From assembly GCA_001769125.1 (NCBI GenBank), contig MEOG01000065.1, positions 1 to 35,746 of the forward strand: 35,746 nt of DNA, read 5' to 3'. The notes under the pieces are model-generated. The model searched no databases. It was not told the DNA's origin and saw nothing but the letters and a program-made list of their open reading frames with translations. Made by a program: the position numbers and the translations under genes. This DNA comes from Bacteroidetes bacterium GWF2_35_48. Its GTDB lineage: Bacteria > Bacteroidota > Bacteroidia > Bacteroidales > GWF2-35-48. Positions 3,053 to 28,820 of the stretch are shown here, piece after piece; within the stretch, counting starts at the first letter, position 1, and every line of letters begins with the position of its first letter.

Positions 3053-3228
3053 CCACTCTGAAAAGTATCATTTTATGGAATTGCCACTAATTTCACAAAT
3101 TAGCACAGATTTAATCACTGATTAATAGAATTAATAACCTGTCTGCTGCCAAGGCAGGTCTGTGAAAACCCGCCTGCGTCTGGCAGGTTGGTGTAATTTG
3201 TGCAGATGGGTTTTCGGAGTGGACTCAA
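3047..3228. repeat. Small element with imperfect 18-bp inverted ends
   Basis: The left end TTGAATCCACTCTGAAAA (3047-3064) and the reverse complement of the right end (3211-3228) agree at 16 of 18 positions. Both differences are transitions that would allow G-T pairing in RNA. Inside are a GCCACTAATTTCACAAATTAG block and a CCTGCC/GGCAGG palindrome cluster at about 3136-3190. No target duplication is visible. The left end overlaps the heptamer array, so the exact boundary is uncertain. It may be a decayed MITE-like element or only a structured dispersed repeat. Confidence 0.5.
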
Positions 3229-19265: not shown

Positions 19266-20066
19266 ATGAAAAAATATTTATTAATTTTTATTTTCCTCTT
19301 CTCTGTCCTTTCATCCTGTACGTTTCAGAAGATGTTTTATCATCCGGATACTATTAATACAACATTAGCATTGTCCGATTTCAAATACGAAGAGGTATGG
19401 ATAAATACAGAAGATAATGTAAAAATTAATGGACTTTTTATAAAATCAAAAAGCGAAGCAATAGCTACGATTTTATTTCTTCATGGGAATGCCGGTAACC
19501 TTTCAGGATGGAAAACGACGCTAGAAACACTTGTGAAAAATGGCTTCAATGTTTTTATTATAGATTATCAGGGATTCGGAAAATCAGAAGGAAAACCTAA
19601 GCATAAAAATCTGTTTAAAGATTCAGAAGCTGCTTTGTTTTACATGAAAAAAAGAAACGATACTGCCAAAACAAAAATCATAGTTTTAGGGACTTCAATA
19701 GGTGGACATCTTGCAGTATCTTTAACAGATAAACATCAGGATAAAATTGATGCGCTTGTAATAGAAGGGGCATTTACCACACATAATGAAATAGCTACAG
19801 CAATTGTTCCGTGGTTATTCAAACCCTTTGTGAAAATTTTAGTGCGCTCAAAATTTAAGGCAAAGAAGCACATTAAAAATGTAAAAATTCCAAAGATGAT
19901 TGTTCATAGTGCAGAAGATGTAGTTATTCCTTTTCGTATGGGAAAAAAATTACATGAGCTGGCTGCAGAACCAAAAACTTTTTGGGAGATAAAAGGGAAA
20001 CATATTCATGGTTTGAAATTGTATCCGGATGAGTATGTGCAAAGATTGAAGGAGTTGGTAAAGTAG
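19266..20066 (+). CDS. Alpha/beta hydrolase, probable lipoprotein (BEM46/YfhR-like)
   Basis: The 266-residue product opens with a lipoprotein-type signal (LLIFIFLFSVLSSC, Cys18). FLHGNAGNLSGW forms the oxyanion loop. GTSIGG contains the nucleophile Ser144. Asp218 in HSAEDVVIP and His248 in KHIHGLK complete the triad. The order and length match serine hydrolases of the BEM46/YfhR/ABHD13 group. The substrate is unknown, and activity as an envelope esterase is inferred. It lies 51 bp behind the methyltransferase gene on the same strand and may be read through from it. Its 3' end opens directly into the mobile-element region. Confidence 0.85.
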   Translation: MKKYLLIFIFLFSVLSSCTFQKMFYHPDTINTTLALSDFKYEEVWINTEDNVKINGLFIKSKSEAIATILFLHGNAGNLSGWKTTLETLVKNGFNVFIIDYQGFGKSEGKPKHKNLFKDSEAALFYMKKRNDTAKTKIIVLGTSIGGHLAVSLTDKHQDKIDALVIEGAFTTHNEIATAIVPWLFKPFVKILVRSKFKAKKHIKNVKIPKMIVHSAEDVVIPFRMGKKLHELAAEPKTFWEIKGKHIHGLKLYPDEYVQRLKELVK

Positions 20067-20220
20067 ATTTGAATATGTATTAATTTGAAGATTTTTACGA
20101 ACATTGAGCTTGCCTGCCCTGCTTTAGCAGTGGTCAAAATGAGAAGATGAATCAACCTGCCTTGTCGGCAGCTACCGTGTGGACACAAATAATGAAAAAC
20201 GACTCCGGAGGAGTCGAATG

Positions 20221-20242
20221 CCTGCCTTGCCGGTCAGGCGGG
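20221..20242. repeat. CCTGCC-type palindrome present only in element copy 1
   Basis: A 22-base block beginning CCTGCC and ending GGCGGG sits between GAATG and TTTATAAC, which are joined directly in copy 2 (20581-20592). It is of the same kind as the palindromes that the elements themselves interrupt. So a small palindrome appears to have entered the element, or to have been lost cleanly from copy 2. Confidence 0.7.
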
Positions 20243-20258
20243 TTTATAACCCCGAGCT

Positions 20259-20283
20259 ATGGTTATTGAGCGAAGTCGAAATA
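20259..20283. repeat. 25-base block with GAGCGAAGTCGAA in the hairpin loop of copy 1
   Basis: In copy 2 the hairpin arms CCCGAGCT and AGCTCGGGG are separated by two bases (CA). In copy 1 they are separated by 25 bases containing GAGCGAAGTCGAA (20268-20280). Close copies of this 13-mer stand at 3018, 26340 and 33561. Confidence 0.7.
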
Positions 20284-20468
20284 AGCTCGGGGTATAAACA
20301 AATGAGAATAAAAAGATTTTGGCGGAAAATTTGCGTAATACCTATGTTAACCTTACATAACAATATAAATATGCAAATTTTATGACAAAATCTCAATTAA
20401 AAAAGATGTGTCCACACGGTAGCTTGTCGGCAGACAGGTTTGAATATGTATTAATTTGAAGATTTTAA

Positions 20469-20510
20469 CGAACATTGAGCTTCGAACATTGAGCTTCGAA
20501 CATTGAGCTC
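20469..20510. repeat. Three tandem 14-bp units (CGAACATTGAGCTT)
   Basis: Three units, differing only in the last base of the third. The first leader (20098-20111) holds a single copy, so the array expanded after the two units arose. Confidence 0.85.
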
Positions 20511-20535
20511 CTGCCTGCCGCCTGCCTGCCGGCGA

Positions 20536-20744
20536 GCTACCGTGTGGACACAAATATTGAAAAACGACTCCGGAGGAGTCGAATGTTTATAACCCCGAGC
20601 TCAAGCTCGGGGTATAAACGAATGATAATAAAAAGATTTTGGCGGAAAATTTGCGCAATACTAATGTATAATCTGACAGTACAATACAATTATGCAAATT
20701 TTGTGACAAAATCAAGCTGATAAAAGATGTGTCCACACGGTAGC
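20536..20744. mobile_element. MITE-like element, copy 2 (209 bp, 17-bp TIRs, 9-bp target duplication)
   Basis: It has the same perfect 17-bp ends as copy 1 (20536-20552 and 20728-20744). It is flanked by its own duplication TGCCGGCGA (20527-20535 and 20745-20753), different from that of copy 1, so it inserted separately. All three inner hairpins are kept; the middle one is nearly loopless. It lies between CCTGCC (20521-20526) and GGCAGG (20754-20759), the arms of a palindrome. It ends 73 bases before the mtnA start and so may affect mtnA expression. Confidence 0.88.
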
Positions 20745-20817
20745 TGCCGGCGAGGCAGGGTAGGCAAGGTGTCGAAATGTCGAAATGTGAAGTTGTAATA
20801 AAGATAAAATAAGATAA

Positions 20818-21861
20818 ATGAAAGTTAACGGAAAAGAATACAGAACTGTATGGATGCAGGGCTCCAGTGTATTTATGATTGAGCAAAATTTGCTGCCTTT
20901 TGAATTCAGAATCATTGAATGTAAAAATTATCTGGAAACATGTTTTGCTATTAAAACAATGATTGTACGCGGTGCCGGAGCTATTGGAGCAGCTGCCGGT
21001 TTTGCAATGGCGCAGACATTTCTACATACGCCAGAAAAAAACAAAGAAGATTTTTTGTTAAAAGCAAAATTGGAAATAGAAAATACGCGCCCCACTGCTC
21101 AAAATTTATTTTATGCTGTGAACCGGGTTTATTTTGCCGGACTGAAAAGTACAATAGATGCTCAACATGAAGCGCAGCAGGTCGCAGACGACGATGCGTA
21201 TACTTCGCAAAAAATCGGAGAATACGGAAATGAAATAATCAAAGACGGGTTCAGAATTGAAACGCATTGTAATGCCGGATGGCTTGCTTTTGTTGATTTT
21301 GGGACAGCCTTGTCTCCTGTTTATTATGCAAATTGTGCAGGTAAAAATATTTTTGTTTACGTGGATGAAACCCGTCCGCGTAGTCAGGGAGCCAGACTTA
21401 CAGCATGGGAATTGCAAAACGAAAATGTTCCCCATGTTATTATTCCGGATAATGCAGGTGCGCATCTGATGTCGCTGGGTAAAATTGATATGATGATTGT
21501 CGGCGCAGACCGAATTGCTGCAAACGGCGATGTGGCAAATAAAATCGGCACGCTTGAAAAAGCTATTGTTGCAAAAGAATATGGTATCCCTTTTTATATT
21601 GCAGCTCCTTTTTCAACTTTTGATTTAAAATGTGAAACAGGGCAAAACATCCCTATTGAAGAGCGAAGCGAAGAGGAAGTATTGTATCAAACAGGCCCTG
21701 ATGCTGAAAATATTGTGCGAAAAATATTGGTAAGCGCTCCCGGTTCTACTGCTTTCAATCCAGCCTTTGATGTTACACCTGCGAAATTTATTACGGGGAT
21801 TATAACTGAAAAAGGAATTATTGATGCGAGTAAAATGGTTGTAGAGAAAATTAATAATTAG
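20818..21861 (+). CDS. mtnA: Methylthioribose-1-phosphate isomerase (eIF2B-alpha-like fold)
   Basis: This enzyme turns 5-methylthioribose-1-phosphate into the ribulose form in the salvage of methylthioadenosine; family members can also take 5-deoxyribose-1-phosphate. The 347-residue length is typical. VRGAGAIGAAAG is the N-terminal phosphate-site loop (usually RGAPAIG). THCNAGWLA holds the catalytic Cys151. VDETRPRSQGARLTAWEL and VGADRIAANGDVANKIGT, with catalytic Asp231, are diagnostic. The TAG stop codon is also the first three bases of the 11-bp repeat array. A class II aldolase gene follows about 200 bp downstream on the same strand and may use the product. Confidence 0.93.
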   Translation: MKVNGKEYRTVWMQGSSVFMIEQNLLPFEFRIIECKNYLETCFAIKTMIVRGAGAIGAAAGFAMAQTFLHTPEKNKEDFLLKAKLEIENTRPTAQNLFYAVNRVYFAGLKSTIDAQHEAQQVADDDAYTSQKIGEYGNEIIKDGFRIETHCNAGWLAFVDFGTALSPVYYANCAGKNIFVYVDETRPRSQGARLTAWELQNENVPHVIIPDNAGAHLMSLGKIDMMIVGADRIAANGDVANKIGTLEKAIVAKEYGIPFYIAAPFSTFDLKCETGQNIPIEERSEEEVLYQTGPDAENIVRKILVSAPGSTAFNPAFDVTPAKFITGIITEKGIIDASKMVVEKINN

Positions 21862-22035
21862 GAACTCAATAGGAACTCAATTGATGTTCAATAGGAATTC
21901 GATAGAAATACAATAGAAATACAATAGGAATACGATAGAAATTCAATAGAAATACAATTGTACATCTACCGAACTAACAATTGAACATCTATCGTACATC
22001 TATTGTTGCACTATCGAACATCTATTGAATTATTA
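21859..22035. repeat. 11-bp periodic array, 16 units, switching orientation at the middle
   Basis: The intergenic sequence divides into 11-base steps with one 12-base exception. Nine units of the kind TAGGAACTCAA, TAGAAATACAA and TAGGAATACGA (21859-21957) are followed by seven of the kind TTGTACATCTA, TTGAACATCTA and TCGTACATCTA (21958-22035). The second kind is close to the reverse complement of the first (TAGATGTTCAA-like; unit 3, TTGATGTTCAA, is intermediate). The two halves could pair into a long imperfect hairpin. The first unit starts on the mtnA stop codon. There are no spacers and no coding sense. Its function is unknown. Confidence 0.9.
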
Positions 22036-28793: not shown

Positions 28794-28820
28794 CCTGCCT
28801 GCTTGACGCAGTCTGGCAGG
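28794..28820. repeat. CCTGCC/GGCAGG palindrome (unoccupied)
   Basis: CCTGCC and GGCAGG are separated by 15 bases. It is of the same kind as the two palindromes that received the MITE-like elements at 20171 and 20536, but is empty here. Confidence 0.65.

What the first reader, a model, noticed from the sequence alone, without database searches (positions are those of the whole stretch)
20521..20759. The elements insert at the centre of a CCTGCC/GGCAGG palindrome
Removing each element and one duplication copy rebuilds CCTGCC-TTGTCGGCA-GACAGG (site 1) and CCTGCC-TGCCGGCGA-GGCAGG (site 2). In both the nine duplicated bases are exactly the spacer between the palindrome arms. Similar unoccupied palindromes occur at 3136-3190, 20221-20242 and 28794-28820. 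So the transposase may choose structured intergenic repeats as safe landing sites, as some IS elements do with REP sequences.
Basis: partly seen in the sequence, partly recalled or inferred. Interest (0 to 1): 0.68.

Follow-up and report, generated by a model that had tools for sequence, protein, structure and literature searches.

The report
Tn5-like mini-transposons targeting mobile palindromes
In this bacterium, small gene-less relatives of transposon Tn5 sit almost always in the middle of a scattered 20-22 base palindrome, and that palindrome itself looks like a tiny moving piece of DNA, so one mobile element seems to use another as its landing pad.

Summary
The window elements are MITEs (251 and 207 bp) with 16-bp ends CTACCGTGTGGACACA. 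The genome has 31 paired copies. Of the 30 with a target duplication, 13 have a CCTGYC half-site at both edges, 16 at one, 1 at neither.

Two corrections. The duplication is 11 bp, not 9: it includes the innermost base pair of the arms. It ranges from 9 to 12 bp and equals the half-site spacing in 23 of 27 scorable sites. The 'empty' palindrome at 20221-20242 lies inside element 1.

The likely mover is a Tn5/IS50-like IS4-family transposase. The same ends flank such genes in three related genomes, 18 of 22 ends read again behind CCTGYC. Relatives in rhizobia and cyanobacteria insert between inverted C-rich arms (26 sites, 5.19 of 8 pairs against 2.09 by chance).

Unexpectedly, the palindromes are themselves precise 19-22 bp presence/absence modules: 26 of 92 have an uninterrupted 'healed' paralogue; cuts shifted by 15-20 bp have 0. 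REP-targeting insertion sequences, one of the IS4 family, are known; the nesting and the target-set duplication length look new.

The parts
20172..20422 (.). Element 1: 251-bp MITE, ends CTACCGTGTGGACACA / TGTGTCCACACGGTAG
   Evidence: 54 matches of element 2 genome-wide
20537..20743 (.). Element 2: 207-bp MITE with the same ends
20161..20171 (+). left copy of the 11-bp target duplication of element 1 (CTTGTCGGCAG)
   Evidence: sequence
20423..20433 (+). right copy of the 11-bp target duplication of element 1
   Evidence: sequence
20156..20161 (+). left half-site CCTGCC of the palindrome hit by element 1 (last base is also first base of the duplication)
20433..20438 (-). right half-site GACAGG (CCTGTC on the - strand)
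20526..20536 (+). left copy of the 11-bp target duplication of element 2 (CTGCCGGCGAG)
20744..20754 (+). right copy of the 11-bp target duplication of element 2
20521..20526 (+). left half-site CCTGCC of the palindrome hit by element 2
20754..20759 (-). right half-site GGCAGG (CCTGCC on the - strand)
20221..20242 (+). 22-bp palindromic micro-insert CCTGCCTTGCCGGTCAGGCGGG inside element 1
   Evidence: absent to the base from element 2 (GTCGAATG|TTTATAAC, junction 20585/20586) and from another copy (L080, 85 of 86 matched)
20259..20281 (+). 23-bp insert (ATGGTTATTGAGCGAAGTCGAAA) in the hairpin loop of element 1, absent from another copy (L093)
3138..3158 (+). intact, unoccupied unit CCTGTCTGCTGCCAAGGCAGG; empty paralogue of the occupied site at G000:C140 (L106)

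Best explanation
The two elements are MITEs: internally deleted, gene-less derivatives of an IS4-family insertion sequence of the Tn5/IS50 type (NCBIfam NF033590). They were moved in trans by a cut-and-paste DDE transposase dimer. Inferred mechanism: each subunit recognises one half-site 5'-CCTGY-C on its own strand and cuts between Y and C, so the two staggered cuts sit at fixed distances from the two arms, and the duplication (9-12 bp) takes the length that the target dictates. Because half-sites occur in inverted pairs mainly in a dispersed family of 20-22 bp palindromes, these become the landing sites. Those palindromes are themselves precise small inserts without target duplication, spread by an unidentified route, and they also enter the MITEs. 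Shown: ends, duplications, half-site register, empty paralogues of palindromes with and without the MITE, homology of a relative's transposase to Tn5. Inferred: movement in trans, subunit-by-subunit cutting, insertion rather than loss of the palindromes.
For: 31 paired copies, 30 with duplication of 9 (2), 10 (13), 11 (14) or 12 (1) bp, five of them with one mismatch; CCTGYC at both edges 13, one edge 16, none 1. Duplication length equals half-site spacing in 23 of 27. Pairing across the site 5.37 of 8 against 2.18 at other places of the same loci; 21 of 30 sites at p<=0.05. Empty paralogues lacking only the MITE, e.g. L079 vs L329 (100% over 65 bp), window site 2 vs L313 and L064 (93% over 58), L106 vs window 3136 (91% over 88). 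Same ends flank transposase starts and stops in G001, G013, G028; 18 of 22 distinct ends read there stand behind CCTGYC. The complete IS in G372 has the identical 16-bp ends; its protein matches Tn5 transposase over nearly its length (E 2.4e-26), NF033590 (E 1.9e-94), Tnp_DNA_bind and DDE_Tnp_1 above their cut-offs and the Tn5 dimerisation domain just below. 26 other insertions of this transposase type in rhizobial and cyanobacterial plasmids: 5.19 of 8 pairs against 2.09, peak at shift 0. Palindromes as modules: 26 of 92 healed, controls shifted by 10-20 bp 0-1.
Against: No intact copy of the matching autonomous element was found in the window's genome: the N-terminal peptide has 0 matches in G000; its one NF033590 match (C30) belongs to another IS with different ends, has an in-frame stop near its start and runs into the contig end. 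1 of 31 copies (L094) has no duplication and 7 single ends were left out. 4 of 27 sites have their best half-site 4 bases away, in repeated CCTG. With only the 6 pairs outside the duplication, 9 of 30 sites here and 11 of 26 in the survey reach p<=0.05. 4 of 22 ends in G001/G013/G028 and all 5 in G134 and G372 lack CCTGYC. 12 of 26 survey sites are not significant singly; cyanobacteria are weak (3 of 9), and several survey sites are copies of one element. Sites in this genome share a repeat background, so the 30 are not fully independent.
Confidence: 0.82

Rival explanations
1. The transposase recognises a DNA structure: the palindrome extrudes as a hairpin or cruciform and the loop is cut, whatever the sequence.
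For: Relatives hit palindromes of different sequence (CTTCTCTC/GAGAGAAG in L202, GTTCCC/GGGAAC in L209, CCCTCC/GGAGGG in L218).
Against: In 19 of 30 sites of this genome the most stable computed hairpin is off by about 2 bases from the insertion centre; arms often mismatch because CCTGCC and CCTGTC are used interchangeably; the different relatives share a C-rich half-site (YCYCY^CC) rather than free sequence; sites with one exact half-site only are used (16 of 30).
Confidence: 0.12
2. The palindromes are merely common intergenic repeats, and the association reflects survival of harmless insertions, not target choice.
For: 29 of 30 insertions are not inside a complete ORF of 100 aa or more; the palindromes are dispersed (92 half-site pairs with spacer 6-12 in the genome).
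Against: 92 pairs in 5.98 Mb are far too few to be hit at the exact base by chance in 13 of 30 cases; the preference recurs in three other genomes and, with other arms, in other phyla.
Confidence: 0.02
3. The CCTGCC/GGCAGG arms are part of the mobile unit (longer terminal repeats), not target.
For: They flank nearly every copy.
Against: Palindromes without the element exist at paralogous places with matching flanks and 58 exact empty units exist; spacers differ between copies and are duplicated, the outer arms are not.
Confidence: 0.01
4. The 19-22 bp palindromes are not mobile; paralogous copies without them arose by precise deletion of the hairpin.
For: Direction of change was not polarised by an outgroup; palindromes can be prone to deletion (general knowledge).
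Against: The same unit sequence (CCTGCCTACCGGACAGGCAGG, 8 of 92 units counting both strands) sits in at least two unrelated healed contexts, which needs spread; in the clean cases break points fall within a base of the unit ends, without a flanking direct repeat (rows with 116-118 of 120 matched).
Confidence: 0.25

Closest known systems
ISRm22 (IS4 family) in Sinorhizobium meliloti REP elements (Tobes & Pareja 2006, PMC1525189; passages seen)
   Same: IS4-family element; 10 of 10 copies associated with REPs (its Table 2), insertion at the axis of palindromy
   Different: Described as IS with 6-bp repeats, placed in subgroup IS4Sa by PMC2266710; here MITEs of Tn5/IS50-like type, another palindrome, duplications of 9-12 bp set by the spacing, host inferred to be of the Bacteroidota (same genus as G001, whose contig lengths equal those of MAG JACREX)
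IS50/Tn5 and the IS50 subgroup of the IS4 family (De Palmenaer 2008, PMC2266710; passages seen)
   Same: A relative's transposase matches Tn5 transposase over nearly its length; ends fit the subgroup consensus CW------Y---CA-A--W- of its Table 1
   Different: Subgroup direct repeats are given as 8-9 bp; here 9-12, mostly 10-11, with strong half-sites outside the duplication
IS4-subgroup elements with conserved target arms; IS186
   Same: Inverted arms on both sides of the duplication; PMC2266710 reports 'spectacular apparent insertion specificity' in target arms and marks variable direct-repeat lengths for some elements; an IS186B direct repeat GGGGTGCCCCC is tabulated in PMC12102499 (passages)
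   Different: Arm polarity C-rich left / G-rich right here; that IS186 has variable duplications between G and C runs is my recollection, from no call
REP/REPIN palindromes moved by RAYTs (PMC3116915, PMC3733652; [quoted passage not shown] title seen only in the reference list of PMC2884548)
   Same: About 20-bp dispersed intergenic palindromes; [quoted passage not shown]
   Different: No GTAG/CGTC tag; no clear clustering around the Y1_Tnp matches of this genome; precise single-unit presence/absence

Membership tests
IS4 family (elements' source) | DDE transposase with Y-(2)-R-(3)-E-(6)-K signature | tested here: met
   Complete relative in G372: YSCRWTIEEVFRTLK; aligned with Tn5 over the catalytic stretches. 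The window's own MITEs have no gene.
IS4 family, IS50 subgroup | Ends CW------Y---CA-A--W- | tested here: met
   CTACCGTGTGGACACAAAT / CTACCGTGTGGACACATCT against Table 1 of PMC2266710, compared by eye
IS4 family, IS50 subgroup | Direct repeats of 8-9 bp | tested here: not met
   9 (2), 10 (13), 11 (14), 12 (1) of 30; hence 'Tn5-like', not filed as an IS50-subgroup member
IS4 family | Direct repeats of 7-13 bp over all subgroups (Table 1 of PMC2266710) | tested here: met
NCBIfam NF033590 (transpos_IS4_3) | Score above 160 bits | tested here: met
   G372 protein 317 bits. Of the proteins bearing the same ends in G001/G013/G028 only pieces are known: 45-aa C-terminus E 6.6e-5, 30-aa N-terminus no match.
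MITE | Short, gene-less, terminal inverted repeats of a known IS type, target duplications, multi-copy | tested here: met
   140-388 bp among the 30 copies with duplication, 31 paired copies
MITE | Movement in trans by the related transposase | not testable with these tools
   needs an experiment
REP (GTAG/CGTC superfamilies) | GTAG or CGTC tag at one end | tested here: not met
   units read CCTGYC-N7-10-GRCAGG; tags as named in PMC3733652
REP/REPIN | Proximity to a RAYT gene | tested here: inconclusive
   units within 1.5 kb in 3 of 10 Y1_Tnp loci of G000, two of them the same unit; whether these Y1_Tnp genes are RAYTs was not tested
Cyanobacterial small dispersed repeats (Elhai 2008) | definition in that paper | not tested
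   paper not held

The most novel reading that the evidence does not exclude
A two-tier nest of mobile DNA: 20-22 bp palindromes that move as units without target duplication, and Tn5-like transposases whose two subunits each measure their cut from their own half-site, so that the target, not the transpososome, sets the duplication length. Across phyla this transposase group would have specialised on different inverted C-rich half-sites supplied by such repeats or by terminator-like hairpins.
Probability: 0.4. Interest if true: 0.68.

Novelty: new variant of a known kind. Interest (0 to 1): 0.55.

Why it matters
For many DDE transposons the duplication length is a property of the enzyme (general knowledge). 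A Tn5 relative whose duplication follows the spacing of two target half-sites would make transpososome flexibility directly testable in a very well studied transposase family, and would be a naturally site-selective Tn5-type tool. The palindromes give a clean natural system for the open question of how 20-bp repeats without a gene spread: occupied and healed copies of one parent repeat coexist in one genome.

Tried and rejected
Within-window enrichment of the palindrome: not significant. Parent IS in the window's genome: N-terminal peptide 0 matches; the C30 gene is another IS. A complete copy of the element of G001/G013/G028: 14 confirmed loci in genome contigs, in four MAGs, each within a few bases of a contig end; none confirmed in viral contigs. 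Transposase pieces alone against Pfam: nothing; against solved structures: only chance-level matches, E 0.95 or worse, later replaced by the complete G372 protein. RAYT origin of the palindromes: no clear clustering. Hairpin-apex targeting: rejected as the main rule. Literature: palindrome words in 0 papers; the 11 papers and the 12 listed of 26 do not describe this system by title and start of abstract; among them is a MITE of Porphyromonas gingivalis (PMC4596501, listing only), not compared. These searches cover only the held open-licence library.

Failed or unusable computations: one search stopped on a missing file; one search returned no alignments (probably unaccepted gap costs) and was rerun; the count '87 of 92' includes self-matches and is void, only its rows with near-complete matches (116-118 of 120, 85 of 86 and the like) are used. 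In one search the model-free gap scan gave 63 clean gaps of 12-60 bp; only 5 of 63 reach a palindromic fraction of 0.7 with my centred score (0.2% of shuffles do), and the mean (0.43) is close to that of shuffles (0.40), so as a class small inserts are not palindromes; the palindromic ones are a subset.

Rows dropped: 7 unpaired ends before the count of 31; L094 before the count of 30; of 55 loci examined, 21 gave no ends with duplication and 8 repeated a place already counted, leaving 26. Of 37 end places in G001, G013 and G028, 22 distinct ones were read, because only the first matches come as loci.

Full report
What was claimed and what is there. Two repeated elements at about 20170-20760 were said to sit in the centre of CCTGCC/GGCAGG palindromes. 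The sequence agrees. The 16-bp ends CTACCGTGTGGACACA are exact at both ends of both elements. No ORF of 100 aa or more lies in them; they are MITE-sized, 251 and 207 bp, between two same-strand ORFs, 19266-20066 and 20818-21861.

Genome-wide test. The window is contig 65 of a 5.98-Mb assembly in 142 contigs. Element 2 has 54 BLAST matches. The 17-base end pattern occurs 69 times with up to 2 mismatches, reversed control 0; these are 31 pairs and 7 single ends. I read all 31 pairs (29 in the stretches, two in the window). Thirty have a target duplication. CCTGYC stands exactly at both edges in 13, at one in 16, at none in 1. Of 27 sites with both half-sites at 5 of 6 or better within 4 bases of the edges, the distance between half-sites equals the duplication length in 23: 13 sites at 11 bp, 8 at 10, 1 at 9, 1 at 12; the other 4 are off by exactly 4. 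Base pairing across the site is 5.37 of 8 against 2.18 elsewhere in the same loci (21 of 30 sites at p<=0.05; with 6 pairs outside the duplication only, 9 of 30), falls to about 1.2 one base aside and has secondary peaks two bases aside (4.07 and 4.53), as expected if the units contain a second, shifted hairpin. 29 of 30 sites are not inside a complete ORF of 100 aa or more; ORFs cut by the ends of the held stretches were not counted.

Length of the duplication. The outer G and C of the apparent ends are target bases: where the target differs, they differ (L093, L078), and relatives show duplications that include them. So the element is CTACC...GGTAG, and the duplications at the two window sites are 11 bp. 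The reconstructed empty sites are unchanged.

Structure or sequence. If a hairpin were recognised, insertions should follow its apex. In 19 of 30 sites the computed hairpin centre (RNA energy parameters, a rough proxy) is about 2 bases from the insertion centre, in 11 it coincides. I therefore prefer recognition of two inverted half-sites. One site (L077) shows a second insertion beside an earlier element end, with one half-site left.

Empty counterparts. Paralogous repeats lacking only the MITE exist: L079 against L329 (100% over 65 bp), L085 against L104 (96% over 51), window site 2 against L313 and L064 (93% over 58), L106 against window 3136 (91% over 88), the third L105 copy against L362 (87% over 85), L097 against L336 (84% over 141). 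In all, 27 of 30 sites had some junction-spanning match of 35 bp or more, but many of these are gapped, partial or (L077) the element's own right flank.

The transposase. Among 60 genomes (own included) the ends, with one mismatch allowed, occur in 4; among 393 of the order, exactly, in 7. In G001, G013 and G028 many sit near contig ends, as collapsed repeats do, and run into the start (MNKISHKPNF.GIFSDKRL...) or stop (...GWILAKQIEKDVSTR) of a transposase gene. The C-terminal piece matches NF033590 weakly. In those three genomes 18 of the 22 distinct ends read stand behind CCTGYC (L109, L114, L119 and L260 do not); over all 35 distinct ends it is 22, with none of the 5 ends in G134 and G372. 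G372 has a complete 1.4-kb element with the identical 16-bp ends; no duplication was found there. Its protein aligns with Tn5 transposase over nearly the whole length, E 2.4e-26, with the catalytic stretches and the YREK signature in place, and passes NF033590 with 317 bits.

The wider group. From plasmid records I collected insertions of NF033590-type elements. Of 55 loci examined (two of them from genomes of the order), 26 distinct insertions had both ends and a duplication of 9-11 bp; no palindrome was asked for in choosing them. Their flanks pair at 5.19 of 8 positions against 2.09 by chance; 14 of 26 are significant singly at 0.05 (11 of 17 alphaproteobacterial, 3 of 9 cyanobacterial; 11 of 26 by the narrower measure) and the mean peaks at shift 0. 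Examples: Sinorhizobium L202 CTTCTCTC/GAGAGAAG, Methylosinus L212, Rhizobium L218; misses: Acaryochloris L206 and L207, Ochrobactrum L214. The half-site is C-rich, YCYCY^CC, sharing with CCTGY^C the C at the first duplicated base (41 of 52 half-sites; 58 of 60 in this genome). Several sites are copies of one element (S. meliloti CP090106, Kovacikia). Whether L202 is ISRm22 itself was not determined.

The palindromes move too. Comparing paralogous repeats showed copies in which the palindrome itself is missing. In a 2.0-Mb sample there are 92 units (half-sites 11 of 12 or better, spacer 7-10). Cutting out the unit and searching the healed 120 bases finds an ungapped copy elsewhere for 26 of 92. 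Moving the cut by 15 or 20 bases either way gives 0 of 92, by 10 bases 0 or 1; shifts up to 6 still give 17-27 because the criterion tolerates 4 mismatches in 28. Clean cases match 116-118 of 120 with the break within a base of the unit ends: L329:1557, L364:12258 and L391:8064 against L342, L383:7264 against L382. The 26 fall into 9 contexts, five of them strong (90% or more over 85 bases or more); both flanks are repeated at one second place, hence testable, for 41 units by another test, 20 of the 26 among them. The window shows it directly: element 1 has CCTGCCTTGCCGGTCAGGCGGG at 20221-20242 between GTCGAATG and TTTATAAC; element 2 reads GTCGAATGTTTATAAC. No target duplication is visible. 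What moves them is unknown; 10 Y1_Tnp matches exist, but units do not clearly cluster near them.

Place among known things. Insertion of IS elements into REPs, including the IS4-family ISRm22 at the palindromy axis, was described in 2006 (PMC1525189, passages). Conserved target arms in some IS4 elements, and the subgroup table used here, are in PMC2266710 (passages). REP/REPIN biology: PMC3116915, PMC3733652 (passages). So the kind is known. New, as far as the searches show, are: this system in what is inferred to be the Bacteroidota, its MITE form, the duplication length that follows the half-site spacing in a Tn5-like group, and a target that is itself a presence/absence module of 19-22 bp.

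Noticed in passing
G000 sample; e.g. L315:7212, L354:2051, window 20259-20281: Other small inserts of 19-25 bp (e.g. ATTGAGC...TCGAAA types, CCTGCTTGC..CAGGCAAG, TTTACCTG..GTAAA) are present/absent in paralogous repeats, some nested in other palindromes.
   Followed up: partly
G000:C5 42511-42835 (L077): Two MITE ends back to back sharing one palindrome: apparently a second insertion at the same site after the first.
   Followed up: partly
window 20469-20509: Threefold tandem CGAACATTGAGCTT just left of site 2, resembling the ATTGAGC motif of some small inserts.
   Followed up: no
window 21859-21968: Run of 11-base near-repeats (TAGGAATTCAA-like and its complement) after the 347-aa ORF (D2).
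   Followed up: no
G000:C30 10184-11161 (L174): A second NF033590 transposase with apparent left end CCTACCGTGTACCCATA, an in-frame stop near its start, running into the contig end.
   Followed up: partly
G000, 10 matches: Ten Y1_Tnp (IS200/RAYT-type) matches; no palindrome family looked for beside them other than the CCTGYC type.
   Followed up: partly
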